48,573 nt of DNA from Deltaproteobacteria bacterium (GTDB lineage Bacteria > Desulfobacterota > Binatia > JACPRU01), in NCBI GenBank assembly GCA_016189835.1, contig JACPRU010000048.1, positions 1 to 48,573 of the forward strand. The letters run 5' to 3'. Positions 2 through 21,287 of this stretch are shown here, piece by piece. The notes below the pieces were generated by a model that saw only the letters and a program-made list of their open reading frames with translations, did no database searches and was not told the origin of the DNA. The position numbers and the translations under genes are program-made. Positions within the stretch are counted from its first letter, which is position 1. Every line of letters begins with the position of its first letter.

Positions 2-1630
<1,629 letters not shown>

Positions 1631-1682
1631 CGAGCCGCGCGAGGGACGCTGGTCCGCCGCCGGCGGCGCACCGAAGGATCTT

Positions 1683-2300
1683 ATGAAGCGGCTGCTCGTC
1701 GTTCTGTTCGTGGCCGTCGGCCTCGCGGCGACGGTCGTGGCGGCATCGTTCTGGGCGCTCGTGCTGCACGGCTTCGACGCTCGACGGCGGCCGTCCGCGG
1801 TCGAGGCGTTCTTCGCCCGCCACGTGCGGCGCCTGGCGATTCCGGCCGCGGATCGCCGAGCGCCGAACCCGGTCGAGCGCACGGTGGACGTGCTGCGCGA
1901 GGCTAGCCAGCACTTCGCCGACCACTGCGCCTCTTGCCACGGCAACGACGGCGCCGGAGACACGGACATCGGCGGCGGGCTCTACCCGCCGCCGCCCGAC
2001 ATGCGCCGGGAAGCCACCCAGTCGCTCTCCGACGGCGAGCTGTTCTACGTCATTCACAACGGCGTTCCGTTCACCGGCATGCCCGCCTGGGGGCAGGGCG
2101 ACGCCGCGCGGGACCTCGACAGCTGGACGCTCGTGCATTTCATCCGTCATCTTCCGGAGATCTCGGCCGAGGAGATCGCCGAGATGGAGCGGCGGAACCC
2201 GAAGAGCGCCGAGGAGCGGCAGGAAGAGGACGAGGAGCGCCGTTTCCTCGAGGGAGACGACGCCGCGGGCGCACCCGCCGCAGGTCGCCATCGCCACTGA
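1683..2300 (+). CDS. Membrane-anchored c-type cytochrome, single heme
   Basis: 205 residues. An N-terminal hydrophobic segment (about residues 4-28) anchors or exports the protein. One heme-binding CASCH motif lies near residue 85, and a plausible axial Met sits in FTGMPAWG about 50 residues later, the usual layout of class I cytochromes c. The tail is rich in Glu/Arg, ends in His residues (GRHRH) and has no recognisable domain. It should carry electrons in the periplasm, but the partner is not evident. It lies 52 bp after the copper ATPase and 19 bp before the next small exported protein, so the three may be co-transcribed. No cytochrome oxidase subunits are present, so assignment to a specific oxidase would be a guess. 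Confidence 0.85.
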   Translation: MKRLLVVLFVAVGLAATVVAASFWALVLHGFDARRRPSAVEAFFARHVRRLAIPAADRRAPNPVERTVDVLREASQHFADHCASCHGNDGAGDTDIGGGLYPPPPDMRREATQSLSDGELFYVIHNGVPFTGMPAWGQGDAARDLDSWTLVHFIRHLPEISAEEIAEMERRNPKSAEERQEEDEERRFLEGDDAAGAPAAGRHRH

Positions 2301-2319
2301 ACGGAAGGAGAACACGTCC

Positions 2320-2640
2320 ATGCTCGACAAGCTCGTGATCGCGCTCTGCGGCGTGCTGCTCGCCCTGCCGAACGCGGCACTCGCCCACGGCGGCAGCACG
2401 CACCTCAAGGGGACCCTGGAGTCGGCGAGCGCGGATCAGATCGTCGTCAAGGACGAGCGTGGAGCGGTTCATCCCATCCGCCTCGATTCCAAGACGCGCT
2501 ACCGCACGAGCAGCGGAGGCGTCGCCCAGCCTTCCGAGCTGCGCGCCGGGGACCGCGTCGTCGTTCACGTCGGAGTCGAGGCGAAGCAGTCCACGGCGCT
2601 CGAGATCCGCTTCGGCCCTGGCCCCGGCGACCGGCCTTGA
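2320..2640 (+). CDS. Small exported protein of unknown function
   Basis: 106 residues with a clear Sec-type signal peptide (hydrophobic core LVIALCGVLLALP, cleavage likely after ALA in NAALAHG). The mature part reads as a small beta-rich domain with the pattern KGTLES...IVVKDERG...RLDSKTRYR...LRAGDRVVVHV, like periplasmic OB-fold-type or DUF5666-like proteins. The His residues after the cleavage site (AHGGSTHLKG) together with the upstream copper pump make a metal-related role possible, but that is inference only. A good ribosome site (GGAAGGAG) precedes the ATG. It is probably the last gene of the copA-cytochrome group, since a perfect 9-bp-arm inverted repeat follows 34 bp after the stop. 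Confidence 0.75.
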   Translation: MLDKLVIALCGVLLALPNAALAHGGSTHLKGTLESASADQIVVKDERGAVHPIRLDSKTRYRTSSGGVAQPSELRAGDRVVVHVGVEAKQSTALEIRFGPGPGDRP

Positions 2641-2674
2641 GCGGCGCTTCTCAAAACTTGCGAATCGCCGCCTC

Positions 2675-2698
2675 GCCGTTCCCAACGGTGGGAACGGC
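2675..2698. repeat. Perfect 9-bp-arm inverted repeat (terminator or activator site)
   Basis: GCCGTTCCC at 2675-2683 pairs perfectly with GGGAACGGC at 2690-2698 around a 6-base loop. No T-run follows, so it is a poor intrinsic terminator. It sits about 100-125 bp upstream of the start site predicted from the sigma-54-like element at 2775-2789, the usual distance for an NtrC-type activator site. Both readings are open. Confidence 0.5.
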
Positions 2699-2774
2699 AG
2701 CGGCTCATTCGTGCGTGCCGAGGATCGCGCGCCCGCCGGGAAGCGATGCGGCCGTTGTCAGACTCCTCCCGAAG

Positions 2775-2789
2775 TGGCACTCGTCGTGC
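2775..2789 (+). promoter_or_regulatory. Sigma-54-like -24/-12 promoter of the usp gene
   Basis: TGGCAC at 2775-2780, five bases, then GTGC at 2786-2789. The GG and GC doublets are exactly 10 bases apart; only the first T of the -12 TTGC is replaced by G. The predicted start would be near 2800, leaving a very short leader that cuts into the GGAGG before the ATG at 2810. That weakens the case. Confidence 0.45.
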
Positions 2790-2809
2790 GGAGTCGCGGA
2801 GGTGATCGA

Positions 2810-3280
2810 ATGAAGATCAAACGCATCCTCGTCCCGGTCGACTTTTCCGCGACCTCGCTCGCGGCGCTCGACGCGGCCATCGACCTGTCGCGGGCCCTCG
2901 ACGCCTCGCTCGAGATCCTCTGCGTGGTCGAGCCGTTCGTGTACGCCCCGCTCGCCGGCCCCGCGGTCGACCTGAGCGCCATCCGCGTGCGGCAGGAGCG
3001 CATCGCCCGCCGCCGGCTCGGTGCGCTCGAGCGGCGGCTCGCCAAGCGCCGCGTGCGCTGTCGCGCCGAGCTCCGCCTCGGCAATCCCTATCGGACGATC
3101 GTCGAGCGCGCGACCAAGCTCCCGGCGGAGCTGGTGGTGATGGGCACGCAAGGCCGCAGCGGGCTCTCGCACCTGCTGCTCGGCAGCGTGGCGGAGCGCG
3201 TGGTGCGCTCGGCTCCCTGTCCCGTCCTGACCGTGCGGGCGCGGCCGAAGGCCGCGCGCAGGCGGCCGAAGAAGCGCTGA
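2810..3280 (+). CDS. Universal stress protein (UspA family)
   Basis: 156 residues, the normal size of a single-domain Usp. It starts with the typical strand KRILVPVDFS and carries the ATP-binding signature G-x2-G-x9-G-S/T near the C-terminus (GTQGRSGLSHLLLGSVAERV), followed by the family ending APCPVLTVR and a basic tail. It is likely a cytoplasmic, ATP-binding homodimer involved in survival under energy or oxygen stress. The ATG at 2810 follows GGAGGTGATCGA, and translation upstream of it in the same frame shows no conserved sequence, so the long open frame is not the gene. A CBS-pair protein follows after 29 bp; Usp and CBS proteins often occur together. Confidence 0.92.
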   Translation: MKIKRILVPVDFSATSLAALDAAIDLSRALDASLEILCVVEPFVYAPLAGPAVDLSAIRVRQERIARRRLGALERRLAKRRVRCRAELRLGNPYRTIVERATKLPAELVVMGTQGRSGLSHLLLGSVAERVVRSAPCPVLTVRARPKAARRRPKKR

Positions 3281-3309
3281 TCCCCACTCGCGCCGGCAAG
3301 AGGCCCCCG

Positions 3310-3738
3310 ATGCACCGCTTTCTCGAGCTTCACGTCGAAGACTTCATGACCCGATCCGTGGTGACGATCTCTCCCGCCGCGACGATCGCCGAGGCGCAGC
3401 GGCTGTTCGTCGAGCACGACTTCAACTGCCTGCCGGTGGTGCGGGACGGCAAGCTCGTCGGCGTGCTCACCAAGCTCGACCTCTTGAAGGCATTCCGCTT
3501 CCGCATGACGCACGTGGTCCCCCCCTACGCGTCGATCGTCGCCGAGCCCGTGCGCACGGTGATGACCGAGGACCCCGCGACGGTGCGTCCCGACGCGCCG
3601 CTCACTCGCGTGCTGGAGAAGATGGTGAACACCCGTTTTCGCAGCTTTCCGGTCGTGCTCGGCGACGAGCTGGTCGGCATCATCTCCCGCGAGGACGTGA
3701 TGCGCGGCCTGCTGAGCGTCGCCCGCGGCGAAGCGTAG
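3310..3738 (+). CDS. CBS-domain pair protein
   Basis: 142 residues made up almost entirely of two CBS motifs: residues about 10-65 (VEDFMTRSVVTISPAATIAEAQRLF, then DFNCLPVVRDGKLVGVLTKLDLL) and about 78-135 (VMTEDPATVRPDAPLTRVLEKM, then FRSFPVVLGDELVGIISREDVM). Such free-standing pairs bind adenosine nucleotides and act as energy sensors. No effector domain is attached. AAGAGG lies six bases before the ATG. It is probably co-transcribed with the preceding usp. A second protein of the same kind heads the nitric oxide module at 21288-21746. Confidence 0.9.
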   Translation: MHRFLELHVEDFMTRSVVTISPAATIAEAQRLFVEHDFNCLPVVRDGKLVGVLTKLDLLKAFRFRMTHVVPPYASIVAEPVRTVMTEDPATVRPDAPLTRVLEKMVNTRFRSFPVVLGDELVGIISREDVMRGLLSVARGEA

Positions 3739-3786: not shown

Positions 3787-4869
3787 GTGATCGGAGTCGT
3801 CGTCCTCGGAATGCACCGCAGCGGGACCTCCGCCGTGACCCGCGCCGTGAACCTTCTCGGCGCTGCGCTGGGCGACGTCCGCGACCGGATGCCGCCGCGC
3901 GAGGACAATCCGAGCGGCTTCTGGGAAAGCGCGTCGCTGACGGCGCTCAACGACGAGCTGCTCGAGGCCTTGGATGCCCAGTGGAGCGCGCCGGTCTCGC
4001 CGCGGGCCTTGCGGGAAGGCCTGGCTCGCCTCTCCTGCTTTCGCGAGCGCGCGGGCGAGGCGCTGCGCGCGGTCTTCCCGGCCCCCCGCTCGGTGTGGAA
4101 GGACCCGCGCCTGTCGATCACGCTGCCGTTCTGGCTCCCGCTGCTGGAGCCCGCCCCCGTCTTCATACTCACCCACCGCAACCCTCTGGAGATCGCCGCG
4201 TCGCTCGCGGTGCGCAACGGCTTCTCGAAGGCGTTGTCGCTGGCACTCTGGGAGCGCTACGTGCGGTCGGCGCTCGAGCACGTGCAGGGCCGTGCGGCGT
4301 TCGTGGTGCGCTTCACCGACCTGCTCGAGGATCGCGCCCGCTGCCTGGCCGAGCTGCGGAGCTTCCTCGTTCGTCATGACGCCGCCGCCGGCCTGGACGC
4401 CTCGGTCGAGGAGAGCGCGGGGGACATCGATCCTCGGCTCCGCCATCACGTGCGGGCGGCGGCGTCCTTCGCGAACGACCACGACGCGTCGCCGGAGCAG
4501 AAGGATCTCCACGGCGTGCTCGAGCGAATCGCCGGGTCGCACGACCGGCTCGGCGTTCCCCGACCGCCCGGCGAAACGCCGTGGGCCACGGAGATCATCG
4601 AGGAGCGCCGCCGGCGCTTGCGCCAGGAACGCCTTGGGGCAGCCGACGCCGAGGCCGAGCGCGGCCGCAGCGACCGCCTGCAACAGCAGCTCGACGACCT
4701 CCGGCGGTGCAGCGCGGAAGAGGTGCGGCGGCTCTCGACGCTGATCGGCGAGCGCGACGACCTGATCGCCGAGCAAGAGGCGCGGCTGCGGCGGCTCAGG
4801 CAGGGCCTGCCGGGTCGCCTCGCGCGCTGGATTCTGGCGTCGCACGTGCGCCGACGGCACTCGGGCTGA
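3787..4869 (+). CDS. Sulfotransferase-family protein with C-terminal coiled coil
   Basis: 360 residues, GTG start. The N-terminus carries the 5'-phosphosulfate loop of PAPS-dependent sulfotransferases (VLGMHRSGTSAV, residues about 5-16), a conserved PRLSITLPFW stretch and FILTHRNPLEIAASL, which matches the 3'-phosphate-binding region (R-x-P-x-D/E-x2-x-S type). From about residue 265 to 340 the sequence is a long Arg/Glu/Gln-rich coiled coil, ending in a basic RLARWI segment. Relatives usually sulfate glycans or small molecules in the cytoplasm. The gene is followed at 18 bp by the NMT1-like protein and the NRPS-like enzyme, so it may tailor their product. That link is inference from position only. 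Confidence 0.82.
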   Translation: MIGVVVLGMHRSGTSAVTRAVNLLGAALGDVRDRMPPREDNPSGFWESASLTALNDELLEALDAQWSAPVSPRALREGLARLSCFRERAGEALRAVFPAPRSVWKDPRLSITLPFWLPLLEPAPVFILTHRNPLEIAASLAVRNGFSKALSLALWERYVRSALEHVQGRAAFVVRFTDLLEDRARCLAELRSFLVRHDAAAGLDASVEESAGDIDPRLRHHVRAAASFANDHDASPEQKDLHGVLERIAGSHDRLGVPRPPGETPWATEIIEERRRRLRQERLGAADAEAERGRSDRLQQQLDDLRRCSAEEVRRLSTLIGERDDLIAEQEARLRRLRQGLPGRLARWILASHVRRRHSG

Positions 4870-4887: not shown

Positions 4888-5766
4888 ATGAAGAAGATAC
4901 GCTTCGCGCTGCTGCGCGGCGTCTGCCAGACGCCGGCATACGTCGCTTACGAGAAGGGCTTTCTCGCCGACGAAGGACTGGATGCCGAGCTGAGCATCGC
5001 GCCTACGGCCTGGATGGTTCCCGAGCAGCTGCTCGGCGGGCAAAGTGATTTCGCCGTCATCCCCTGGACGCGCGTGGCCGCCGCGCTGCCCGGAGAAGCT
5101 CCGCTCAAGCTGCTGTGCGGATCGGGACGCGAGGAGGCGGTCATCGTCGTCCGCAAGGGGCTGGGGATATCGGACGTGCGCACCGTCGCCATCCCGCGCG
5201 AAGGCGGCATGAAGGACCTCACGGCGATGGGCCTCATCCACAGTCTCGGCTGGGAGCGGTGCGAGCTGCGCCGTTTTCCCTCGGGGGACGGCGCGATCAT
5301 CGCGTTCGTCGGCGAGGGGGCGGACGCCGCCTCGATGGTCGAACCGTACGCGGCGATGATGGAGCGTCTCGGAATCGGCGTGGCGGTGCGCCGCACCGGA
5401 GACGTCTGGCCCGGAGCGCCCGGATGCTCGCTCTCGGCGAGCGCCGCGCTCATCGCCAGCGACCCGGACCTCGTGCAGCGCGTGGTCGACGCGTACCTGA
5501 GGGCGGCGACGTTCGTGCACGACGACCCGCAGGAAGCGGCACGACTCGCCGCCCCCTACATCGGCGTGCACGCGGACACCGTTCGCCGGGCGCTCGCCGT
5601 CAATCGGCCCGACGTCGACGCCGTTCGCAACCGCGATGCGATGGAGGCGATCCTCGCGCTCATGCAGAGGCTCGGATACGTCGCCGAGCCGCCGCGGGGA
5701 TTCGCCGACCTTCGCTTCCTCGATCACGCGCAGGCGAGGCGCGGGGCCGGCCAGGCTCGTGGCTGA
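4888..5766 (+). CDS. NMT1/THI5-like (SsuA-type fold) protein lacking a signal peptide
   Basis: 292 residues with the look of an ABC-type substrate-binding protein of the NMT1/THI5/SsuA group: an N-terminal strand then AYVAYEKGFLADEGLDAEL, then a short-term binding cleft (GGQSDFAVIPWTRVA), VRTVAIPREGGMKDLTAMGLI and GADAASMVEPYAAMM. The N-terminus (MKKIRFALLRG) has no signal peptide or lipobox, and no permease or ATPase gene is nearby. The protein is therefore probably cytosolic, as are the enzymatic members of this fold (THI5, MqnA/MqnD). A strong ribosome site (AGGAGGTGGAAC) precedes the ATG, and the 3' end overlaps the NRPS-like gene by 8 bp, implying translational coupling. It could be an enzyme or a ligand-delivery protein for that synthetase; which is unknown. 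Confidence 0.8.
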   Translation: MKKIRFALLRGVCQTPAYVAYEKGFLADEGLDAELSIAPTAWMVPEQLLGGQSDFAVIPWTRVAAALPGEAPLKLLCGSGREEAVIVVRKGLGISDVRTVAIPREGGMKDLTAMGLIHSLGWERCELRRFPSGDGAIIAFVGEGADAASMVEPYAAMMERLGIGVAVRRTGDVWPGAPGCSLSASAALIASDPDLVQRVVDAYLRAATFVHDDPQEAARLAAPYIGVHADTVRRALAVNRPDVDAVRNRDAMEAILALMQRLGYVAEPPRGFADLRFLDHAQARRGAGQARG

Positions 5767-8700
5767 AGCGCTGCTCGCGTTCTCGCGCGAGGATACGCGG
5801 CAATCGATCGCTTCGCGGTTCCGGCAAGTGGTCCGCCGGGCGGCGGAGCGGGCGGCGATCCGCGACGGCGAGCGGACCCTCACTTACGCGGAGCTCGATC
5901 GCTCGTCGGACCGGATCGCCGCGGCGCTGCGGCGCCACTTCGCCGGGGATCACCCCGCGGTCGCGCTCCTCCTTCCCCACGAGGCGAGCGCCCTCCTCGG
6001 GCTGCTCGGCGTCGCCAAGAGCGCCGCGGTCTACGTGCCGCTGGACGTCGAATGGCCGCGCGAGCGTCTCGACGATCTGCTGTGCGACGCCGAGGCCGCG
6101 GCCGCCCTGACCGACCGGCGCGGCGCCGCCGTGCTCGAGCGGTTGCCGAACTGGCGCGGACGGATCGTCGTCATCGACGAGGCGCTCGACCACCCGGCGG
6201 AGCTCGAGGCGAGCGAAGCGCCGTCTCCCGACGCACCCGCTTGCCTCTACTACACCTCGGGATCCACCGGCAGGCCGAAGGGCATCTTGGTCCACCAAGC
6301 GGCGGTGCTGAGCGATGCGCGCAACTACGCGTGCGCGATCGAGATCGGCGGCACGGACCGGCTCGCGTGGCTGTCGCCGCTCGCCTTCGCGGCATCGAAG
6401 CTGCCGATCTTCGGAGCGCTGGCGACCGGCGCCTGCGTTCTGCCGTTCTCGGTGAAGCGACGAGGCGTGCCGGAGTTGGCGGAATGGATGCGACGGGAAG
6501 GGATCACGGTGCTTTCGTGCGTCCCGACGCTGTTCCGCGAGCTCGCGGGGCAACTGCCCGACGGCGAGAACCTTCCCGCGCTGCGCGCCGTGAAGCTCGG
6601 CGGCGAGCCGGTGCTCTGCACGGACGCGGAGCTCTTTCGCCGCAAGCTCCATCGGCGATGCGTCCTGGTGAACGGCCTCGGCATCTCCGAGGCGTCCGGC
6701 ACCGTCTGCTTCTATCACTGGAGCGGCGGCGCGATCCCGGACGGGCCGACGCTGCCGCTCGGATATCCGGTCGACGGAGTCGAGATCGTCCTCCTGGACG
6801 ACGCCGGCCGGCCGGTCCCGCCGGGCCGGCCGGGCGAGATCGCCGTGCGCTCTCGGCAGCTGGCGCTCGGGTACTGGCGCATGCCGGAGATGACGCGCGC
6901 GAAGTTCATCGAGCCGGCGGACGGCGCCGGCGCGCGGACGTTCCGGTCCGGAGATCTCGGCCGGATCTCCGGCGACGGTTGCCTGGTCGGGCTCGGCCGA
7001 AAGGACTCCACCTACAAGATCCGGGGGCAGAGGGTCGACGCCGCCGAAGTGGACGCGGCGATGCTCGCCCTCGGCGAGGTGATCCAGGTCGCCACGGTGG
7101 CTCGCGAGCTGGCGAACGGGCCGAAGCTCGTCTCGTTCGTCGTCCCGGCTCCCGGCAAGACGCCTTCGACTGCGGAGATTCGCCGCCGGCTGCGGCGGCG
7201 ACTCCCCGATTTCATGATCCCGTCACTGCTCGTGTGCCTGCCGTCGCTGCCGCTGCTGCCGAACGGCAAGGTCGACGCCGCCGTGCTCGCGTCGATGGAT
7301 CTCCCGTCGCCCGACGGCGGTGCGGGGGTGGCACCGCGCGACCCGCTGGAGCACCAGCTGTTGCACGTCTGGGAGAGCGTTCTGCGCGTGAAGCGGCTCG
7401 GGGTGACGGACGACTTCTTCGACGTCGGCGGCGATTCTCTCGATGCCGCCCGCATCTTCGCGACGATCGAGCGCCGGCTTCGCATCAACCTTCCGCTCGC
7501 CGAGCTGGCCCGTCATTCGACGATCGAGTCGCTGGCCCGCGCGATCCGGGAGGGTGACGTGCAGGCCGCGGGCAGGACCGCGGTCCTGCTGAACGCGGGA
7601 GAGGGCCGCCTGCCGTTCTTCTGCGTGCCGGGGGCGGGCTCGGATGCGTTCGCGCTGCTCGATCTGTCGCGCCACCTCGGTCCGGAGCAGACGTTCTACT
7701 CGTTCCGCTACCCGGCGATCGACGGCACCCGGCCCGTTTACTCGACCGTCGAGGAGATGGCCGGGCGCTTTCTGCGGGACGTCCGGGCGATCCAGCCCGC
7801 CAGCCCGTACCGTCTCGGCGGCACCTCGTTCGGCGGCGTGGTGGCGTTCGAGATGGCGAGGCAGCTGACGGCGGGCGGCGAGCGGGTGGCGCTGCTCGCG
7901 CTGCTCGACACCCACGGGCCCGGTTACCCGCGGCTGCGCCGCGGCGTGCTTCCCCGGCGCCTCCCGCTGCTGGCTCTTCGCTGGCTCCTGCCGATCGGCC
8001 GCAAGGAGGAGCGCACCTGGGCGAGCCTGCGCGCGGGGATCCGCGAGCGATGGAATCGCCTGCGCGCGCTGGCCGACCTCGCGACGCCGTTTCTCCGATC
8101 GCCGCCGCGGTACGAGCTTCGCTTCCTCTACCTCCAGGAGATCTGTTTTCGCGCCCAGCGCCGCTATCGCTTCCCGCGCTACGACGGACCGGTCCACCTC
8201 TTTCGCGCGGCGCAGCAACCGCCCGCATCCCTCTACGACCTGCGCGAGGATCTGGGTTGGCGGACGCTCGTGCCGGCGGGTCTCGAGATCGCCGAGATTC
8301 CCGGCTACCACGGCGCGCACATCCGCGAGCCGCACGTCCGCACGCTGGCGGCGAAGCTCGGCACGAAGCTCGCCGAAGCCAGCCGCCGACCGCGGGGCGG
8401 CTTCCCGGAGCTCACGCCGCGCACGCGGGAGATCTGGAACGAGATGGGCTCGTGGTGGGACGACCTAGTCGGGGAAGAAGGCAATCCCGCCTCGCGCGAC
8501 CTGCTCGTGCCGGCCGTCGACCGCCTGCTCGCGGCCTCCCCGGGAGAGTGGGTCCTCGACGTCGCCTGCGGCAACGGCTGGTACGGCCGTCGCCTGGCAC
8601 GATCGGGCGCCCGCGTGGTCGGCTTCGACTTCAGCGAGGTGCTGATCGGGCACGCCAGAGCGCGCAGCGCGAGAGCGAGCCTGGACGTCGCCTATCACGT

Positions 8701-9112
8701 GCTGGACGCGACCAAGACGGAGCCGTTGATGAAGCTCGGCGAACGCCGCTTCGACGCCGCGGTGTGCTTCATGGCGCTGATGGACATGACGCAGGTGGAG
8801 CCGCTGTTCGCCGCGCTGTCGCGCCTGCTGAAACCGGGGGGACGGTTCGTGTTCGCGATCGTCCACCCGCAAGCCGACGGCCTCGCGAACGCTTCGCCGG
8901 CGGAGCCGCTCACCGGCATCGGCCTCCCCGGCCAGCCGCTGTCCAACTACTACTTCCACCGGCCGCTGCCGATGCTGCTCGAGGCGGCCGCCGGAGCGGG
9001 CTTCGCGCTCGAGGCGCGGGAGGAGCCGCGGGCCGTCCGGCCCGACGGCCCGCCCGAGAGCGCTCCCATGGCGTTCTTCGTCGGCCGGATGCGCTCGAAC
9101 GGCGCCGCGTAG
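5759..9112 (+). CDS. Single-module NRPS-like enzyme: adenylation-PCP-thioesterase-methyltransferase
   Basis: 1117 residues from a GTG overlapping the upstream stop. Adenylation domain (about 15-530): A3 loop LYYTSGSTGRPKG near 162, A5 NGLGISEAS near 305, A7 SGDLGR, A8 KIRGQRVDAAEVD, and A10 LLPNGKVD with the catalytic Lys. Carrier domain with FFDVGGDSL; the phosphopantetheine Ser is 560. Thioesterase (about 605-860) with nucleophile Ser690 in GTSFGG and a likely catalytic His in YHGAHI. Then a class I SAM methyltransferase (about 880-1117) with VLDVACGNGWYG. There is no condensation domain. In the A4 motif the residue aligned with the amino-group-binding Asp235 of PheA is Ala211 (FAASK instead of FDAS), so an ordinary alpha-amino acid is an unlikely substrate. 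The A-T-TE core recalls enzymes that dimerise aryl alpha-keto acids. Confidence 0.88.
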   Translation: MAEALLAFSREDTRQSIASRFRQVVRRAAERAAIRDGERTLTYAELDRSSDRIAAALRRHFAGDHPAVALLLPHEASALLGLLGVAKSAAVYVPLDVEWPRERLDDLLCDAEAAAALTDRRGAAVLERLPNWRGRIVVIDEALDHPAELEASEAPSPDAPACLYYTSGSTGRPKGILVHQAAVLSDARNYACAIEIGGTDRLAWLSPLAFAASKLPIFGALATGACVLPFSVKRRGVPELAEWMRREGITVLSCVPTLFRELAGQLPDGENLPALRAVKLGGEPVLCTDAELFRRKLHRRCVLVNGLGISEASGTVCFYHWSGGAIPDGPTLPLGYPVDGVEIVLLDDAGRPVPPGRPGEIAVRSRQLALGYWRMPEMTRAKFIEPADGAGARTFRSGDLGRISGDGCLVGLGRKDSTYKIRGQRVDAAEVDAAMLALGEVIQVATVARELANGPKLVSFVVPAPGKTPSTAEIRRRLRRRLPDFMIPSLLVCLPSLPLLPNGKVDAAVLASMDLPSPDGGAGVAPRDPLEHQLLHVWESVLRVKRLGVTDDFFDVGGDSLDAARIFATIERRLRINLPLAELARHSTIESLARAIREGDVQAAGRTAVLLNAGEGRLPFFCVPGAGSDAFALLDLSRHLGPEQTFYSFRYPAIDGTRPVYSTVEEMAGRFLRDVRAIQPASPYRLGGTSFGGVVAFEMARQLTAGGERVALLALLDTHGPGYPRLRRGVLPRRLPLLALRWLLPIGRKEERTWASLRAGIRERWNRLRALADLATPFLRSPPRYELRFLYLQEICFRAQRRYRFPRYDGPVHLFRAAQQPPASLYDLREDLGWRTLVPAGLEIAEIPGYHGAHIREPHVRTLAAKLGTKLAEASRRPRGGFPELTPRTREIWNEMGSWWDDLVGEEGNPASRDLLVPAVDRLLAASPGEWVLDVACGNGWYGRRLARSGARVVGFDFSEVLIGHARARSARASLDVAYHVLDATKTEPLMKLGERRFDAAVCFMALMDMTQVEPLFAALSRLLKPGGRFVFAIVHPQADGLANASPAEPLTGIGLPGQPLSNYYFHRPLPMLLEAAAGAGFALEAREEPRAVRPDGPPESAPMAFFVGRMRSNGAA

Positions 9113-9177: not shown

Positions 9178-11934
9178 TCACGGCTGCGGATCGCGCGACG
9201 GCCTCGGCGCCGCCGGCGAGACTTCCGCTCCTTGGGCCGCGATCCGGATGCGCGCGTCGACCACCACCGCTCCGCGGCCGGGCTCGAGCACCAGCACCGG
9301 GTTGAGATCGAGCTCGGCGATCTCCGGTGCCGCCTCGACGAGCGCGGAGACGCGGCGGACCAGCTCGACCAGCGCCTCGCGGTCGCCGGGCGGCGCGCCG
9401 CGGAAGCCTTCGAGGAGCCGCCGCAAGCGGAGCCCGTCGATCATCTCCCGCGCGTCGACGTCGCTGACCGGGGTCAGGCGGAACGCGACGTCGTTCACCA
9501 CCTCGACGAGCCGGCCGCCGAACCCGCAGGCGACCAGTGGCCCGAACGTCGGCTCAACGGTGACGCCGACCAGCGCCTCGATGCCGCCCCGCACCTCGCG
9601 CTGCAGCAGCACCCCCTCGAGGCGGGCACCGGCCCGCGTCATCCGCTCCTCGAGCGACCGCACCGCCTCCGCCACGTCCCGCGCGGAGCGCAAACCCAGG
9701 ATCACGCCGCCGACGTCGCTCTTGTGCAGCACGCCGGACGCGACGGCCTTGGCCACCAGCGGGTAGCCGAGCCGCTCGGCCGTGGCCACCGCGTCGGCGG
9801 CAGCCGCCTGCTCTGCGGCCGCCGTGTCGACTCCGGAGGCGAGCAGCAGCATCGCGACGTCGCGCGCCGACAACCAGCCGGATCCGCCCTGCGCGGCGGC
9901 GCGATCGACCACCGCGCGGATCGCGCTGTGCGCGGTGCGATCGAGCTGCCACACCTCGCCGCGCGGCCGCCGGCGCCAGCTCGCGTAGCGCTCGGCCGCG
10001 GCCAAGCTGAGTACCGCGTTCTCGGGGAAGCGGTAGACGGGGATCCGGCCCCGGCGCTCGGCGTCGGCCGGCGCGACGTGCTGCGAGGTGACGAACACCG
10101 ACAGCACCGGCTTGCGCGCGTCGATCGCCGCGGCGCCCCGCGCGATCGCCCGGGCCACGTCGTTCGGCGCCGCCTGCGGCGTCGGCACGTTGATCGCGAC
10201 CAGCGCGTCGACGTTGGGGTCGGCGCCGACCAGCTCGATCGCGCGCGCGTACTCCTCGGGCCCCGCCGAGGCGATCATGTCGATCGGGTTCGCCAGCGAC
10301 GCGTGGCGCGGCAGGAAGCCGCGCAGCCGCTCCACCGTCGGCGCCGCCAGGCTCGGAAACTCCAGTCCGCGCCCCTCGGCGGCGTCGGCGAACAGGATGC
10401 CCGGGCCGCCGGCATTGGTGACCACCGCCACCCGCGGTCCGGGCGGCAGCGGCTGGGTGGCCAGCAAGGCGGCCACGTCGAACAGCTGCTCGGTGGTGTC
10501 GGCGCGGATCACGCCCGCCTGCTCGAACAGCGCATCGACCGCCACGTCGAGGCTGGCGAGCGCGCCCGAGTGGCTCGACGCCGCCCGGCGGCCGACGGCG
10601 GAGCGACCCGCCTTGACGGCGACGATCGGCTTGCGCCGCGCCAGCTCGGGAGCGAGCCGGGCGAACTTCCGGGGGTTTCCGAAGCTCTCGAGGTAGAGCA
10701 GCACCACCGCCGTGCGCGGGTCTTCGAGCCAGTAGCAGAGCAGATCGTTGCCCGACACGTCGGCCTTGTTGCCGACCGAGACGAAGCTCGACACGCCGAG
10801 GCCGCGCTCGCGCGCCAGGTCGAGCAGCGCGAGACCGAGCGCGCCGCTCTGCGACAGCGCTCCGAGGTTGCCGATCGGCGGCGTCCCCGGGGCGAACGTC
10901 GCGTTCAGCGCGATCTCCGGATCGGTGTTGAGGATGCCGAGGCAGTTCGGCCCGACCAGCCGCATCCCCGTGCCGCGCACCAGCTCGCGGAGCTGCTGCT
11001 GGGCGTCTCGTCCCTCGGAGGAGGCCTCGGCGAACCCCGCCGAGATCACCACCACCCCGGCGGCGCCCGCCTGGGCGGCGGCGCCGACGGCGGCGGCGAC
11101 CGCCGGCGGCGGCACGGCGACGACCACCAGGTCGACGGCGGCGCCGATCGCGGCCAGCGAGGGATGGCAGCGCAGGCCGTCGATCTCTCGAGCCTGCGGA
11201 TTCACCGGATAGATCGCCCCGCGGAAGCCGCCTTGCCGCAGGTTCGCCACCAGCGTGTGCCCGATGCTTCCCGGCCGGCGGGAGGCGCCGACCACCGCGA
11301 CCGAGCGAGGCCGCAGCAGCCGGGCGATGCTGTGCGCCGCGGCGGCGCGTTCGCGCTCGAGGGCGACCTCGGCCGAACGCTCGGTCTCCGCGGTGGAGAA
11401 CGACAGATGCACCACGCCCGCACCGACCGAGCGCTTCACCACGAAACCGCTCTTGGCGAACACCTCGAGCATGCGGTTGTTCTCGCCGAGCACGTCGGCC
11501 TCGAACTCTTCGATGCCGCCGCGGCGCGCCGCGCGCGCCAGCTCCTCGAGCAGGACCGTACCGACGCCCCGGCCCTGATGCGCGTCGGAGATCGCGAAGG
11601 CGACTTCCGCCCGGCGCGGCGAGGCCGCCGCCCCGGACACCACCGCGTAGCGGCCGACGCCGATGATCTTCTCCCGTGCGCCCGAGCCGAGCGTAGCGAC
11701 GAAGCCGACCCGGTCGACGAAGTCGAGCTCGGTGAAGCGCCGCAGCTCCTCCTCGCTCAGCCGCTTCTTCGCCCCGAAGAACCGAAAGTAGACCGAGCTG
11801 GCGCTGAGCGAGGCGAAGTGGTCGAGCAGGCGCTGCTTGTCGTCGGCGCGGATCGCCCGCAAACGGATCGAGCCGCCGTCGCGCAGGATGCGATCGGCGT
11901 GGAACTCGCGGAGCTCTGTGGCGAAGGTCGGCAT
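9178..11934 (-). CDS. GNAT acetyltransferase / ADP-forming acyl-CoA synthetase fusion
   Basis: 918 residues. An N-terminal GNAT domain (about 20-175) has the acetyl-CoA loop QGRGVG at 120-125 and ENNRMLEVFAKSGF. It is followed by a CoA-binding domain (about 203-330, SVAVVGASRRPGSIG), a succinyl-CoA-ligase-like domain (about 355-660, SQSGALG, GNKADVSGNDLL) and a C-terminal ATP-grasp (about 690-900, YPLVAKAVASGVLHKSDVGGV). This is the domain set of protein lysine acetyltransferases of the Pat/PatZ type, but with GNAT first. The phosphohistidine position of active ADP-forming synthetases is kept (His455 in SSHSGAL), whereas in Pat enzymes the synthetase part is thought to be inactive. It may therefore both make acyl-CoA and acylate proteins. 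It is divergent from the potassium channel gene, with 66 bp between the starts. Confidence 0.9.
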   Translation of the reverse strand: MPTFATELREFHADRILRDGGSIRLRAIRADDKQRLLDHFASLSASSVYFRFFGAKKRLSEEELRRFTELDFVDRVGFVATLGSGAREKIIGVGRYAVVSGAAASPRRAEVAFAISDAHQGRGVGTVLLEELARAARRGGIEEFEADVLGENNRMLEVFAKSGFVVKRSVGAGVVHLSFSTAETERSAEVALERERAAAAHSIARLLRPRSVAVVGASRRPGSIGHTLVANLRQGGFRGAIYPVNPQAREIDGLRCHPSLAAIGAAVDLVVVAVPPPAVAAAVGAAAQAGAAGVVVISAGFAEASSEGRDAQQQLRELVRGTGMRLVGPNCLGILNTDPEIALNATFAPGTPPIGNLGALSQSGALGLALLDLARERGLGVSSFVSVGNKADVSGNDLLCYWLEDPRTAVVLLYLESFGNPRKFARLAPELARRKPIVAVKAGRSAVGRRAASSHSGALASLDVAVDALFEQAGVIRADTTEQLFDVAALLATQPLPPGPRVAVVTNAGGPGILFADAAEGRGLEFPSLAAPTVERLRGFLPRHASLANPIDMIASAGPEEYARAIELVGADPNVDALVAINVPTPQAAPNDVARAIARGAAAIDARKPVLSVFVTSQHVAPADAERRGRIPVYRFPENAVLSLAAAERYASWRRRPRGEVWQLDRTAHSAIRAVVDRAAAQGGSGWLSARDVAMLLLASGVDTAAAEQAAAADAVATAERLGYPLVAKAVASGVLHKSDVGGVILGLRSARDVAEAVRSLEERMTRAGARLEGVLLQREVRGGIEALVGVTVEPTFGPLVACGFGGRLVEVVNDVAFRLTPVSDVDAREMIDGLRLRRLLEGFRGAPPGDREALVELVRRVSALVEAAPEIAELDLNPVLVLEPGRGAVVVDARIRIAAQGAEVSPAAPRPSRDPQP

Positions 11935-12000
11935 GGTCGAGTCGCCCCGGGCGACGCGTCGAGCCCGAAGATCACTCGGTCGACGACGTAGCGATTTCCC

Positions 12001-13110
12001 GTGGCTTCGGTCAACCGGACGGCGGCCCGGCGGCAGGCACTTGCGTTCGAGACCCCGGGCGGGAGATCGTCAGGACGTGCAGCTGGCGCACCCGGAAAGG
12101 CTCGACCACTGAGCGGCGCGGCCAAGAAGCTGCTCGTGCCCTGGGGCGCGCTCGTCGCCGTGGTGCTCGCCGGCACCGTCGGCTACCGGGTGTTCGAGCG
12201 GCTCTCGTGGACCGACGCCGTCTATCTCGCGGTCGTCACGATCTCCACGGTCGGCTACGGGGACATCGTCCCGCGCACCCCGGTCGGCCGGCTGTTCACC
12301 GTCTTCCTCATCCTCAGCGGGGTGGGGGTGGCGCTCTACCTGCTCGGCAGCCTTGCCGAGCTGGTGCTCGAGGGCAGGCTGCGCGAGCTGCTCGGGAGAG
12401 GTGCGATGGAGCGTGAAATCGGCAAGCTGAACGGACACGTGATCGTCTGCGGCTACGGCCGCTTCGGGAAGGCGGTGGCCGACGAGCTGGCGCGCAGCAG
12501 GACGGACGTGGTGGTGATCGACGTCGATCCGCAGAGCGAAGAGGATCTGAAGCGCGCGGCGCTGCCCTACCTGATCGGCTCGGCGCTGTCGGACGAGGTG
12601 CTGAGCCGCGCCGGCGTCGCCCGGGCGCGCGCGATCGTCGTCGCCACCGCGTCGGATTCCGACAACGTCTTCATCACGCTCTCCGCCCGCGAGCAAAACC
12701 CGTCGATCCGCATCCACTCGCGCGCCGAGACCGAGGCCGGCATCCGCCGCCTGCGGCTGGCCGGCGCCGACCAGGTGATCTCCGCCTATCAGACGGGCGG
12801 AACGCGCATCGCGGCATCGATCCTGCGCCCGGCCGTGGTCGACTTCCTGGAGATCTCGAGCCCGGCGCGCGGCGAGGAAGTGGCGATCGAGGAGATCCGC
12901 ATCTCGCCGGGCTCCGGGCTGGAGGGACGCGCGATCCGAGCCATCGAGCACGACCACCCTCGGCTGCGCGTCGTGGCGATCAAGCGCGGCGAGGAGCCGA
13001 TCCGCATCGTCCCCGACCCTTCGACCCAGGTCGGCGGCGGCGATTTCCTGGTCGTGGTCGGCGAGCGGCAGGGGCTCGAGCAACTCGCCCAAATGGCAGG
13101 CCGCGCCTGA
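12001..13110 (+). CDS. Two-helix potassium channel with RCK (TrkA-N/TrkA-C) domains
   Basis: 369 residues from a GTG; no other ATG or GTG in frame precedes the first helix. After a basic, Ala-rich N-terminus come two membrane helices (about 45-62 and 98-120) flanking a pore with the K(+) selectivity filter TVGYGD. A Rossmann RCK domain follows (HVIVCGYGRFGKAVADEL, then VVVIDVDPQ), and a TrkA-C-like domain ends the protein (EEVAIEEIRISPGSGLEGRAIRAI). This is the usual Kch/MthK-type ion channel gated by a nucleotide or ion. It converges on norD with only 6 bp between the stops and is not otherwise linked to that operon. Confidence 0.92.
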   Translation: MASVNRTAARRQALAFETPGGRSSGRAAGAPGKARPLSGAAKKLLVPWGALVAVVLAGTVGYRVFERLSWTDAVYLAVVTISTVGYGDIVPRTPVGRLFTVFLILSGVGVALYLLGSLAELVLEGRLRELLGRGAMEREIGKLNGHVIVCGYGRFGKAVADELARSRTDVVVIDVDPQSEEDLKRAALPYLIGSALSDEVLSRAGVARARAIVVATASDSDNVFITLSAREQNPSIRIHSRAETEAGIRRLRLAGADQVISAYQTGGTRIAASILRPAVVDFLEISSPARGEEVAIEEIRISPGSGLEGRAIRAIEHDHPRLRVVAIKRGEEPIRIVPDPSTQVGGGDFLVVVGERQGLEQLAQMAGRA

Positions 13111-13116
13111 GGCCCG

Positions 13117-15138
13117 TCAACCGCCGCGCACCGCGGTCAGGCGCCGGTAGATCTCGGGCAAGCGGCGCGGCAGATCGCCGAGCTCGCCGATCACCGCGTA
13201 GCCGTTCGGTCCGAACATGCGCGGCAGATAGCTCGACGCCTGGCGATCGACGGCGAGGCAGAACACGCTCACTCCCTGCAGCCGCGCCTCGGCGGCCGCC
13301 TGGCGCGTATCCTCGATGCCGTAGAGTCCCGCGTACTCGTCCTCGTCGTTGGGCTTGCCGTCGGAGAGCACGAGCAGCAGCCGCACGCGGGAGGGCTCGC
13401 GGCAAAGCGCCGCGGTGAGATGGCGCAGCGGGGCGCCGAGCCGCGTCAGCCCGTCGCCGTGAGCGCCGGCGATGCGCCGCCCGACGAGCGTCTCGCAGGC
13501 CTCGCCGAACGCCTTGATCCGCGCCACCCGGACGTTTCTCGGACCCTGCCCCGAGAACGCGAAGACCGCGTGACGGTCGCCGAGCCCCGAGAGCGCGCTG
13601 CAGAACACCAGCGCGGCCTCCTTCTCGACGTCGATCACGCGCTTCGAGCCGCTCGCCCAGGATTCGGTCGATCCGGTCGCGTCCACCAGCAACGCGACCG
13701 AAACGTCGCGACGAAGCGGGCGCTCGCTGGCATACAGCCGCTCGCTGGCCGGGCGCCCGGCGGCGCGATCGGCGAAGTCCTCGACGTAGGCGTCGAGGTC
13801 GACCTCCTCGCCGTCGCGCTCGTGGCGCCGACGCTCGCGCCGCGGGCGCAGTTGCTCGAAGCGGCGCCGGACTTCTTCGAGGAGGCGCCGCTCCGCGTCG
13901 AGCGTGCGCTCGACCCAGCCGGCGTCGCCCGCGGAGGCGAGCGATTCGCGGACCACGGCGTATCCGGGCCGGTAGGCTCCGCTGCGGAAATCCCACTCCG
14001 GATAGGCGAGCGCTGCGGGCGCCGGGTCGCGCGCGGCGCTCGAGCCGCCAGCGTCACGCCGCTCGCTCTCCGCCTCGAGCACCTCGCGCACGGGGCCAGC
14101 GTCGCGCACGCGGGAAACCTCGCCGAGGCGCTCGAGCTCGGAGGACAGGGCGTCGAGGTCGAGATCCTCCGCGTCGTCTCGCGGGCGCGCGAGGCCGGCG
14201 GGGTCCTGCACGCTCTGCGGCGGATCGCCGAACGGCAGGACGAGCGGCCCGGTGCGCTCGCTCGGCTGCTCGGCGGCGGCGTGCCGCGCCTCGATGCGGC
14301 GCGAGAGCCGCCGCGAGCGAAGCGGCGGGCGCTCGCCGCCGGCCGGCGCGGTCGCCGCGACCGCATCGAGATCCGGGCGCGGACAGCCCCAGTGCGGCAC
14401 CGGCGCCACGCCGCGGTACTCCCCGCCCGCCGTGAACGGCGGCGCCGCGGCCGCGCGCCGCGCCCAGGCGGCCACCGCCGGCGCGCTCGATTCCGCTTCC
14501 GGCGGCTGCGGCAAGAGGCCGAGCGAATCGCCGAGCGCCGCTTCCAGCACCCGCCGCAGGCAGTGCTCCACGGCGCGCTCGCGAGCCGAGAGCCTCGCCG
14601 GCTCGGGGCGCCGCGCGAGAGCGAAGCGCCGCGCGCGCCGCAGCGCCTCGGCTAGACCGGGCAGCTCGGCCGCCACCGCGGCGTCGGCGAGCGCCCCCTC
14701 GGCGATCCAGTGAAGATCGCGCGCCAGCGGCGCGCGCGGACCGGCCGCGATCGCTCCGCGGGCGAGCCGCGCGCCGAGCGTGAGCGCCGCCAGGCGAAGC
14801 AGCTCGCCCCCGTCGATGTCGCGCCCCGAGAGGTCGAGGCGGCGCGGCAGGAAGATCCCTTCGCCGTCGCTGAACGCTTCGGCGCGGGGCTCGTGCTGCC
14901 ACGGCGCCAGGCCCCCCAGGCGGCGCGCCAGCCAGCTCGGGCGCGGCGGCGCGTCGCAGGGAACGATCGGCCAGTCGCGATCGAAGGCCGCCCGCACCAG
15001 CAGCTCGAGCCGCCGGCGTCGCTCGGCGAGCGAAGTCCCGCCCGGCGCGCTCGGCGGAAGCCATCGGTGCCACAGCCGGCGGGCGGCGGCGCTGGCGCGC
15101 TCGGCGGCGTCGAGCAGGACGTCCTCGGCCTCGGGCAT
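13117..15138 (-). CDS. norD: NorD, von Willebrand A protein for NO reductase activation
   Basis: 673 residues. The last 220 or so form a VWA domain with a metal-ion (MIDAS) motif, VALLVDATGSTESW, and the second MIDAS element VLSDGKPND. The N-terminal 450 residues are Arg/Ala-rich and helical, as in other NorD/CbbO proteins. NorD works with the AAA ATPase NorQ to mature or insert metal into the NorCB complex. It is the last gene of the nor operon, 16 bp after norQ, and is slightly longer than the roughly 600-640 residues usual for NorD. Assignment rests on the VWA domain plus its place after norC-norB-norQ. Confidence 0.9.
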   Translation of the reverse strand: MPEAEDVLLDAAERASAAARRLWHRWLPPSAPGGTSLAERRRRLELLVRAAFDRDWPIVPCDAPPRPSWLARRLGGLAPWQHEPRAEAFSDGEGIFLPRRLDLSGRDIDGGELLRLAALTLGARLARGAIAAGPRAPLARDLHWIAEGALADAAVAAELPGLAEALRRARRFALARRPEPARLSARERAVEHCLRRVLEAALGDSLGLLPQPPEAESSAPAVAAWARRAAAAPPFTAGGEYRGVAPVPHWGCPRPDLDAVAATAPAGGERPPLRSRRLSRRIEARHAAAEQPSERTGPLVLPFGDPPQSVQDPAGLARPRDDAEDLDLDALSSELERLGEVSRVRDAGPVREVLEAESERRDAGGSSAARDPAPAALAYPEWDFRSGAYRPGYAVVRESLASAGDAGWVERTLDAERRLLEEVRRRFEQLRPRRERRRHERDGEEVDLDAYVEDFADRAAGRPASERLYASERPLRRDVSVALLVDATGSTESWASGSKRVIDVEKEAALVFCSALSGLGDRHAVFAFSGQGPRNVRVARIKAFGEACETLVGRRIAGAHGDGLTRLGAPLRHLTAALCREPSRVRLLLVLSDGKPNDEDEYAGLYGIEDTRQAAAEARLQGVSVFCLAVDRQASSYLPRMFGPNGYAVIGELGDLPRRLPEIYRRLTAVRGG

Positions 15139-15154
15139 CCCCGTTCCGCCGCGC

Positions 15155-16003
15155 CTAGACGATCACCGCGTGCACCAGCTCGCGGATCGCGCCGAGCAGC
15201 TCCGGATCGTCGGAGAGCGGCGCGGCGATCGCCGTCTCGCAGGCGCGTCGCCTCTCCACCCCGCTGGCGACCAGACAGGCAGCGTGCACCAGCAGCCGTG
15301 TGCTCGCCACCTCGACGAGGCCCCGGTCGCGCAGACGCCGCACGCGCTCGGCCAGCCGGACGAGCTCGACGGCCACCGCGCGCTCCACGCCCGCCTCGCG
15401 CCGCACGATCTCGATCTCCTGCTCCGGGGTGGAAAAGTCGAAGTCGAGGGCGACGAAGCGCTGCCGGGTGGATGGCTTCAAATCCTTCATCACGTTCTGG
15501 TAGCCCGGGTTGTACGACACGACGAGCTGGAAGTCGGGGTGCGCCACGACCAGCTCTGCCGCCTTCTCGAGCGGCAGCAGACGCCGGTCGTCGGTGAGCG
15601 GATGGATGGCCACCACCGTATCGGGCCGCGCCTCGACGATCTCGTCGAGATAGCAGATCGCTCCGTCGCGCGCCGCCGTCGTGAGCGGGCCGTCCTGCCA
15701 GACGGTCTCGCCGCCGCGCACGATCCAGCGGCCGGTGAGATCGTTCGCCGAGAGATCGTCGTGGCAGGCGACGGTCACCAGCGGCCGGCCGAGCCGCCAG
15801 GCCATGTGGCGCACGAAGCGGGTCTTGCCGCAGCCGGTCGGGCCCTTGAGCAGGATCGGCAGCCGACGCCGGTGGGCGGCCTCGAACAGCGCGACCTCGT
15901 CGCCGCGCGGCAGATAGAACGGCTCCTCGCGCGGGCGCTCGAGCGCGCCGCCCGCCGGCGGCGGGGCGGCGAGCGGGGCTCCGCTGCGCGCCTCAGCTCG
16001 CAC
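15155..16003 (-). CDS. norQ: NorQ, AAA+ ATPase of the MoxR/CbbQ type
   Basis: 282 residues, GTG start overlapping the norB stop by 11 bp. It has Walker A GPTGCGKT near residue 55, a Walker B-like [12 protein letters not shown], the sensor stretch [25 protein letters not shown] and a C-terminal helical domain. This is characteristic of CbbQ/NirQ/NorQ chaperones, which pair with a VWA protein (here norD) to activate a metalloenzyme (here NO reductase). The first 25 residues are Ala/Pro-rich and not conserved, so a later start is possible. Confidence 0.93.
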
Positions 16004-17339
16004 GGGAGGCCGCGGGGAGACGCTTCGGCGGCCCCGCCGAGACGAAGTCCCAGAGGAACGCGACGGCCCCGCCGGCGAACAGCACGGCGGTGGCCAGCCA
16101 CATCAGATAGTGCACCTGAATCTTCTTCTGGGTCTCGAGGAAGCCGAAGCCCATGATGCGCTCGAGGTACGTCTGGGTGAGGCCCGCCGCGCCGATCGCC
16201 ATGGTCATGCCGAACATGCCGCCGACCATCAGCCAGAAGGCCGCCAGGCCGAGGCGCGTCTGGCGCTGCTCGTCGCGCACGCCGGTGAGCGCCGGCAGCG
16301 CGTAGCTGATGATCGCCAGCACGATCATCGCGTAGGCGCCGAAGAACGCCATGTGCCCGTGCATGGTGGTGATGTGCGTGCCATGCGTCCAGCGGTTCAC
16401 CTGCGGCCAGGTGTGCGCGAAGCCGAGCAGTCCCGCGCCGAGCGTCGAGAACAGCGCCGAGCCGACGGTCCAGTGCACGGCGATCGCGTTGGGATGGCCG
16501 AGACCGGAGCGGCGGATGACGGTGTAGGCGTAAATCGTCATCGCCAGGAAGGCGAGCGGCTCGAGCGCCGAGAACACCCCGCCGATCCACAGCCAGTACG
16601 CGGGAACGCCGATCCAGTAATAGTGATGGCCGGTGCCGAGAATGCCCGAAAGGAACGTGAGGCCGACGATCACGTACAGCCACTTCTCCATCACCTCGCG
16701 ATCGGCCCCCGACAGGCGGATCAGCAGGAACGCGAGGATCGCGCCCATCACCAGCTCCCACACCCCCTCCACCCAGAGGTGAACCACCCACCAGCGGTAG
16801 AAGCGGTCGAGCGTGTAGTTGTCGAAATGGACGAGCCCGGGAAGGAAGAGCAGCGCGGTCGCGGTGAGCCCGCCGATCAGGATTCCTTCGGTGGTGGTGA
16901 ACCGCCCGGCCTGGCGAATCGTCAGCAGCAAGTTGCCGAGGAAGAGCAGCATCACCACCACCACGCCGAACTTGAGCGGTAGCGGCATCTCGAGCAGCTT
17001 GCGTCCCTCGGTGATGCCGAACAGGTAGCCGACGACCGTGGTCACGCCGATCGCGAGCCACAGCGCGAGCTGCACGTAGGCGAGCCGCGTGCTCCAAATC
17101 TCGGTGCGCGACTCCTCGGGCACCATGTAGTAGGCCGCGCCCATGAAGCCGGTGAGGATCCACACCAGCAGCAGATTGGTGTGGATCGCCTTGGTGGTGG
17201 CGAAGTTCATCACGCCGAGCAGCGGGTCGGGACCGAGGAACTTGGCGAGCGAGAGAAAGCCGAAGACGAGCTGCAAGCCGAACAGCAGCACCGCGGCGAG
17301 GAAGTAGGCGTAGGCGACGCGCTGCGAATCGTACGTCAT
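15993..17339 (-). CDS. norB: Nitric oxide reductase large subunit NorB (cytochrome c-dependent type)
   Basis: 448 residues with about 12 membrane helices, the length of classical cNorB. The heme-copper oxidase-family histidines are visible: [11 protein letters not shown] (low-spin heme ligand), [13 protein letters not shown] (FeB site with the extra Glu), [10 protein letters not shown] (FeB His pair) and [17 protein letters not shown] (heme ligands). There is no quinol-oxidising N-terminal extension as in qNor, consistent with the norC gene just upstream (22 bp). It reduces 2 NO to N2O in the cytoplasmic membrane. No nitrite or nitrous oxide reductase is in the window, so a detoxifying role is as likely as full denitrification. 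Confidence 0.96.
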
Positions 17340-17361
17340 CGTGAGTCCCTCCGCGCGCGGC

Positions 17362-18171: not shown

Positions 18172-18389
18172 CGCGGGTCTTCCTCCTTCCCGGTGCCCAC
18201 GCGCCGCATCGCGCGCAGCGTTTCCAGCAGCGCGAGCCCGAACGCGCCGAGCCCGGCGGCCGCGGCGGCGATCACGGCGATATCGGCCGCCAGCGGCTCC
18301 CCCGACCGCCCGAGCAGCGGGGCGGCCAGCACGAGCGCGATGCCGGTCAGAACCAGGCCGGCGATCGCCAGGTCGGCACGGACCGCCAA
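18168..18389 (-). CDS. Small two-helix membrane protein in the nor operon
   Basis: 73 residues, TTG start with a GGAG nine bases upstream. Two hydrophobic helices (about 7-28 and 33-55) are joined by a short polar loop, with a charged C-terminus (RRVGTGKEEDPR). It sits between a 46-residue membrane protein and norC and overlaps norC by 4 bp, so it is surely co-translated with it. Size and topology resemble NorF of other nor operons, but I see no diagnostic motif and the COX3-like NorE is absent. Function unknown. Confidence 0.7.
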   Translation of the reverse strand: MAVRADLAIAGLVLTGIALVLAAPLLGRSGEPLAADIAVIAAAAAGLGAFGLALLETLRAMRRVGTGKEEDPR

Positions 18390-18392
18390 CGC

Positions 18393-18533: not shown

Positions 18534-18632
18534 GCCCACCTCCGGGAACGCAAACCGGGCGATTGAATCACCGCTCTCGACCACAGGTCAACCGGAGAAC
18601 CGGGCAAGACCGCGAAGTCGTGCCCCGGCAGC

Positions 18633-20033: not shown

Positions 20034-20061
20034 CGCTGACGGTCTTCCTCCATCCGGTGTC

Positions 20062-21270: not shown

Positions 21271-21287
21271 CGACGGGTGGGCGGTGC

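What the first reader, a model, noticed from the sequence alone, without database searches (positions are those of the whole stretch)
5759..9112. NRPS-like enzyme with unusual order A-PCP-TE-methyltransferase and no Asp235
A-T-TE proteins without condensation domains are known mainly from fungi (quinone and furanone synthetases that dimerise aryl alpha-keto acids). Their adenylation domains also lack the amino-binding Asp. Here Ala211 replaces it, the catalytic Lys in A10 is kept, and a SAM methyltransferase is fused after the thioesterase, where its substrate would normally already be released. This suggests methylation of a free or TE-held product, or of the acid before loading.
Basis: partly seen in the sequence, partly recalled or inferred. 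Interest (0 to 1): 0.75.

Follow-up and report, generated by a model that had tools for sequence, protein, structure and literature searches.

The report
One-protein acid-activating synthetase with fused methyltransferase
A bacterium known only from a metagenome bin carries a single protein that appears to activate a carboxylic acid other than an ordinary amino acid, hold it, release it and add a methyl group, which is a known kind of NRPS-like enzyme with an extra methyltransferase part not seen in any relative searched here.

Summary
A 1,117-residue protein (5759-9112, +) reads A-PCP-TE-methyltransferase. All catalytic residues are present, and the Asp235 position is Ala211. No condensation domain was found in the recovered genome (a 75% complete bin). 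The TE-MT fusion looks genuine: the junction is in frame, codon periodicity is continuous, and there is no start codon before the methyltransferase core.

The A domain belongs to a well-supported clade (22 rows, SH-aLRT 100). None of the other 21 members has the amino-binding Asp, and none has the Pro of the GPTE motif. These are starter A-T proteins of NRPS lines plus free-standing A-T-TE proteins, mostly in one sister family and once in Nostoc. So A-T-TE without Asp235 is ordinary for this bacterial clade, and bacterial A-T-TE enzymes were already known (RalA, EchA). The code AALSKGGGTK matches no keto-acid code I found, so the substrate is probably a non-alpha-amino acid, with keto acid only one option.

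What is new is the C-terminal methyltransferase, absent from 148 class genomes, 395 phylum genomes and 72,556 plasmids. A separate O-methyltransferase gene overlaps one relative's A-T-TE gene, and a separate one serves fungal AlfA. I propose methylation of the released product. New variant of a known kind.

The parts
5759..9112 (+). A-PCP-TE-MT gene, 1117 aa, GTG start
5819..7288 (+). adenylation domain (residues 21-510)
   Evidence: Pfam AMP-binding and AMP-binding_C; clade without Asp235
6389..6391 (+). Ala211 codon, place of Asp235 of PheA
   Evidence: LgrA alignment; residue position
6683..6685 (+). Ile309 codon, place of the Pro of GPTE (LgrA P483)
7268..7270 (+). Lys504 codon, A10 lysine
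7355..7546 (+). peptidyl carrier domain, phosphopantetheine Ser560
   Evidence: Pfam PP-binding 533-596
7574..8398 (+). thioesterase domain, triad Ser690-Asp717-His854
   Evidence: Pfam Thioesterase; sister of the TE of G093
8432..9109 (+). SAM methyltransferase domain, motif I VLDVACGNG
   Evidence: Pfam Methyltransf_25; AF2 pLDDT 77 and Foldseek hits to natural-product methyltransferases
4888..5766 (+). SsuA/NMT1-like protein without signal peptide, overlapping the synthetase gene by 8 bases; probable operon partner
3787..4869 (+). P-loop sulfotransferase-like protein, first gene of the probable three-gene operon
   Evidence: Sulfotransfer_3 below cut-off; sequence GMHRSGTSA; common in the class

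Best explanation
It is a self-contained NRPS-like synthetase that makes a small methylated molecule without forming peptide bonds. The A domain adenylates a carboxylic acid that lacks an alpha-amino group (alpha-keto, alpha-hydroxy or similar, possibly with a second acidic group facing Lys279) and loads it on its own PCP. The TE takes the acyl group on Ser690 and releases it, most likely by joining it to a second unit or another nucleophile, because simple hydrolysis would only give the acid back. The C-terminal methyltransferase then methylates the freed hydroxyl or enol product. Shown by sequence: domain order, intact catalytic residues, no condensation domain in the recovered genome, loss of Asp235 and of the GPTE Pro, clade membership. 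Inferred: substrate class, coupling by the TE, methylation after release, and involvement of the two upstream genes.
For: Intact active-site motifs in all four domains. Clade of 22 A domains (SH-aLRT 100) in which 0 of the 21 others keep Asp235, against 62 of 68 outside; the GPTE Pro is kept in 0 of 21 against 45 of 68. No condensation domain in the own genome. The nearest TE (96/95 support) belongs to another Asp235-less A-T-TE protein. In G142 an O-methyltransferase gene overlaps the start of an A-T-TE gene of the same clade, and in fungi a separate O-methyltransferase AlfD acts after the A-T-TE enzyme AlfA (PMC12105029). The nearest folds of the methyltransferase include enzymes that, from general knowledge, act on free small molecules (MitM, RebM, UbiG, ToxA).
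Against: No substrate is known for any member of the clade. Most close relatives are A-T loading modules, some heading NRPS lines, so an unseen partner in the missing 25% of the genome could take the acyl group. The code fits no characterised non-amino-acid domain. Ala at position 235 alone does not rule out an amino acid: McyG has Val there and was reported as Phe-activating (PMC11253843). The methyltransferase cap region is modelled poorly (residues 156-183 of the model). Only an AcpS-type carrier-protein activator was found.
Confidence: 0.5

Rival explanations
1. Activate-modify-release: the acid is loaded on the PCP, the fused methyltransferase methylates the thioester-bound acyl group (C- or O-methylation), and the TE only hydrolyses the methylated acid.
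For: It gives a purpose to loading and simple hydrolysis in one protein; the methyltransferase is in cis with the carrier.
Against: The methyltransferase lies after the TE rather than inside or before the A domain as in usual NRPS methylation domains (general knowledge); its nearest folds include free-product methyltransferases; one clade relative and AlfD keep the methyltransferase separate (PMC12105029).
Confidence: 0.25
2. It is a true keto-acid dimerising enzyme of the RalA/EchA/AlfA kind (furanone or quinone synthetase) with a fused O-methyltransferase. (This is a special case of the main model.)
For: Same A-T-TE plan without condensation domain; Asp235 lost; GPTE Pro lost as in the keto-acid domain StsA (PMC11253843); O-methylation follows the synthetase in the allantofuranone pathway (PMC12105029); fungal PpaA1 shows that a fourth C-terminal domain can be added to A-T-TE (PMC10316625).
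Against: Fungal quinone synthetases start their code with Val, and published bacterial keto-acid codes with Val or Gly; here Ala-Ala-Leu-Ser-Lys (PMC10316625, PMC5238615). The nearest kin are diverse loading modules. Direct comparison with RalA/EchA was not made.
Confidence: 0.2
3. It is a loading unit of a larger assembly line whose partner genes lie in the unrecovered part of the genome; the TE proofreads or hands the acyl group over.
For: Clade members are often A-T starters, some encoded next to C-A-T proteins (L056); the genome is 75% complete.
Against: No condensation domain anywhere in the recovered genome; flanking genes are unrelated; A-T-TE forms recur as single proteins.
Confidence: 0.15
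4. The fusion is an assembly or indel artefact joining an A-T-TE gene and a methyltransferase gene.
For: Single copy, metagenome bin, no second genome of the same family held.
Against: In-frame linker of under 20 residues, continuous codon periodicity, no start codon in the gene frame before the methyltransferase core, no intervening stop in the gene frame.
Confidence: 0.05

Closest known systems
Bacterial and fungal A-T-TE NRPS-like synthetases (RalA, EchA, AlfA, AtrA, TdiA, MicA)
   Same: A-PCP-TE order without condensation domain, no Asp235 (PMC5523082, PMC10316625)
   Different: Code starts Ala, not Val; fused methyltransferase; substrate unknown; sequence relation to RalA/EchA not tested
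PpaA1/PpaA2 of Psilocybe cubensis (A-T-TE-dioxygenase)
   Same: A fourth tailoring-type domain fused C-terminally to A-T-TE (PMC10316625)
   Different: There a dioxygenase, reported inactive and dispensable; here a methyltransferase with intact SAM motifs
AlfA plus AlfD (allantofuranone)
   Same: A-T-TE synthetase whose pathway uses an O-methyltransferase after release (PMC12105029)
   Different: Two separate proteins, with a dehydrogenase step between them
StsA/CesA keto-acid A domains
   Same: Asp235 lost, Pro of GPTE lost (PMC11253843)
   Different: Followed by a ketoreductase inside depsipeptide lines; different code
Unnamed clade of Asp235-less A-T and A-T-TE proteins in this class and in Nostoc sp. 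UHCC 0926
   Same: Same A-domain clade, diagnostic Trp243, Phe259 and Trp373, same A-T(-TE) plan
   Different: 31-39% identity only; none has the C-terminal methyltransferase

Membership tests
NRPS-like A-T-TE synthetase | A, PCP and TE domains in this order, no condensation domain | tested here: met
NRPS-like A-T-TE synthetase | intact Lys(A10), PCP Ser and TE triad | tested here: met
   alignment
alpha-keto-acid activating A domain | aliphatic or small residue in place of Asp235 | tested here: met
   Ala211
alpha-keto-acid activating A domain | Pro of GPTE replaced (StsA Met415) | tested here: met
   Ile309; not exclusive, since 23 of 68 outside domains also lack the Pro
alpha-keto-acid activating A domain | rest of the code like a known keto-acid code | tested here: not met
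   AALSKGGGTK against VGMWNGASV, GIFWLGASG and others
furanone/quinone synthetase (RalA, EchA, AtrA) | sequence clade of these enzymes | not tested
furanone/quinone synthetase (RalA, EchA, AtrA) | dimerises an aryl keto acid | not testable with these tools
   needs enzyme assay
aryl-acid activating A domain (DhbE/EntE) | aryl A5 motif QQVxFMAEGL, and stand-alone | tested here: not met
   A5 reads VNGLGISEAS; the A domain is fused to PCP and TE
class I SAM methyltransferase | motif I with acidic residue and glycines; Rossmann fold | tested here: met
Asp235-less A-T/A-T-TE clade | falls inside the clade in a tree of 90 A domains | tested here: met
   SH-aLRT 100, long branch 1.35

The most novel reading that the evidence does not exclude
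A complete one-protein pathway in which a new bacterial clade of non-amino-acid A domains feeds a TE that couples two acyl units, and a fused methyltransferase caps the freed product, perhaps followed by sulfation by the operon's sulfotransferase-like protein and processing by its cytosolic SsuA-fold partner.
Probability: 0.2. Interest if true: 0.6.

Novelty: new variant of a known kind. Interest (0 to 1): 0.42.

Why it matters
Little is known about A domains that lack the amino-binding Asp outside a few keto-, hydroxy- and aryl-acid cases. This clade, with very varied pocket residues, is an untested set of such domains, and this member is the easiest to assay because activation, release and methylation sit in one protein. 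If the methyltransferase acts after the TE, it is a natural template for adding tailoring domains behind a release domain.

Tried and rejected
(1) The same four-domain order elsewhere: none in 148 class genomes, 395 phylum genomes or plasmids. The sampled searches score only a few candidates per genome, so rare cases may be missed. (2) A conserved three-gene operon: the sulfotransferase-like gene is common and unlinked; the SsuA-like orthologues in G004 and G007 are not beside NRPS genes. (3) genome-contig search: returned only mycobacterial multi-module NRPS proteins. (4) PDB profile search: best matches are ordinary amino-acid A domains; no structure of this clade among the 60 shown. (5) FNR/NnrR-type box upstream: nothing above chance. 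(6) Fold search of the methyltransferase: a mix of O-, N-, C- and S-methyltransferases and one cyclase, so the acceptor atom cannot be named. (7) Literature search for A-T-TE-MT: no paper.

Full report
What is there. The frame 5636-9112 (+) codes for a 1,117-residue protein from GTG 5759; this start overlaps the stop of the gene before it by 8 bases. Pfam finds AMP-binding, AMP-binding_C, PP-binding, Thioesterase and a class I methyltransferase in that order. The phosphopantetheine Ser560, A10 Lys504, TE Ser690/Asp717/His854 and the SAM-binding Asp934 are present. The window lies in a metagenome bin of 2.6 Mb, about 75% complete, in which no condensation domain was found and whose only ACPS-family match is of AcpS type as judged by sequence.

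Is the fusion real? Across the TE-MT boundary the frame is open, the GC pattern of the three codon positions is steady, and there is no ATG, GTG or TTG in frame from 8330 until an ATG at 8444, inside the first helix of the methyltransferase. Two adjacent genes would need an indel to look like this; I give that 5%.

The missing Asp. In alignments to LgrA, Ala211 stands where the amino-binding Asp stands. The ten-residue code is AALSKGGGTK; the GrsA positions were placed partly from memory of the PheA sequence and checked at two positions by the LgrA alignment. Ile309 stands in the place of the GPTE Pro (LgrA P483, read from the alignment). In the keto-acid enzyme StsA both positions are changed as well, and putting Pro back abolishes activity (PMC11253843). 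This favours a substrate without an alpha-amino group, but does not say which.

Relatives. A profile from this protein, an A-T protein of genome G038 and one of Nostoc sp. UHCC 0926 separates a family from ordinary A domains: members in the class score above 500 bits, and ordinary domains score below about 470 (truncated members score lower). In the sampled phylum nothing outside the class exceeds 444 bits. In a tree of 90 A domains the query and 21 others form one clade (SH-aLRT 100). The query is on a long branch and may be basal. None of the 21 has Asp235 (2 are gapped there) against 62 of 68 others; none has the GPTE Pro against 45 of 68. Clade members are A-T proteins, some preceding C-A-T proteins, and free A-T-TE proteins in G142, G064, G137, G038 and G133. 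G093 adds an A-T-TE protein broken by frameshifts, whose A domain was not in the tree but shares the motifs and has Gly at the Asp position. The TE of the query groups with that of G093 (96/95). RalA and EchA are bacterial A-T-TE enzymes as well (PMC5523082).

The methyltransferase. No relative searched carries it in fusion. Two facts tie methyltransferases to A-T-TE proteins: in G142 an O-methyltransferase gene ends on the first base of an A-T-TE gene of this clade, and in the allantofuranone pathway AlfD methylates a product derived from the A-T-TE enzyme AlfA (PMC12105029). The AF2 model of the domain has mean pLDDT 77 with a poorly modelled cap; its nearest solved folds include natural-product methyltransferases acting on free molecules, with mixed acceptor atoms.

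Mechanism. I propose: adenylation of a non-alpha-amino carboxylic acid, loading on the PCP, transfer to TE Ser690, release with bond formation, and methylation of the freed product. The first steps rest on intact motifs; the substrate class rests on lost residues; coupling by the TE rests on the argument that hydrolysis alone would be futile and on known A-T-TE enzymes; methylation after release rests on domain position and on the separate methyltransferases above. The rival with methylation on the carrier before hydrolysis is not excluded (0.25).

Neighbours. The two genes upstream (sulfotransferase-like; SsuA-like without signal peptide) are spaced as one operon. The SsuA-like protein has two orthologues at 58-59% identity in genomes where this synthetase was not found, also without signal peptide. 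Its model (pLDDT 89) resembles sulfonate and taurine binding proteins and also the cytosolic enzymes Thi5 and DszB. A link to a sulfonated or sulfated compound is a guess.

Verdict. The finding is real and correctly placed. The enzyme is a new variant of a known kind. The interesting parts are the fused methyltransferase and the uncharacterised clade of A domains, not the absence of Asp235 as such.

Noticed in passing
window 4888-5766: Cytosolic SsuA/NMT1-like protein with Cys13 in RGVCQxPAYVA kept in three orthologues and absent from exported paralogues; by motif memory it sits like the nucleophile Cys27 of desulfinase DszB, which is among the fold matches. It may be an enzyme rather than a binding protein.
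   Followed up: partly
L124 11218-13911; L126 8619-11612: Several A-T-TE relatives carry Cys instead of Ser in the TE nucleophile motif (GYCNGG, AECGGG), unlike the query.
   Followed up: no
L127 2845-4599; L128 862-2682: Asparagine-synthase-type amidotransferase genes lie directly beside A-T-TE genes of the clade in G133.
   Followed up: no
L057 8143-12139: The A-T-TE gene of G093, nearest TE relative, is broken by frameshifts and follows a luciferase-like monooxygenase gene.
   Followed up: partly
L122 1045-19533: G140 contig 33 holds a run of NRPS genes with at least two Asp235-less A domains among ordinary ones.
   Followed up: no
window 23-3738 and 9178-21534: The synthetase operon sits between P-type ATPase, universal stress, CBS, GNAT-CoA-ligase and K+ channel genes and a nitric-oxide-reductase-like set (CbbQ/NorQ-type AAA, COX1-like, cytochrome c) with a protoglobin histidine kinase, suggesting a low-oxygen or NO-related region.
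   Followed up: no
window 23836-26973: A single 1,045-aa protein fuses an MFS transporter, an acyltransferase and an AMP-binding domain.
   Followed up: no
L140 1432-3294: The only carrier-protein activator found in the bin is of AcpS type; an Sfp-type enzyme may lie in the missing part.
   Followed up: no
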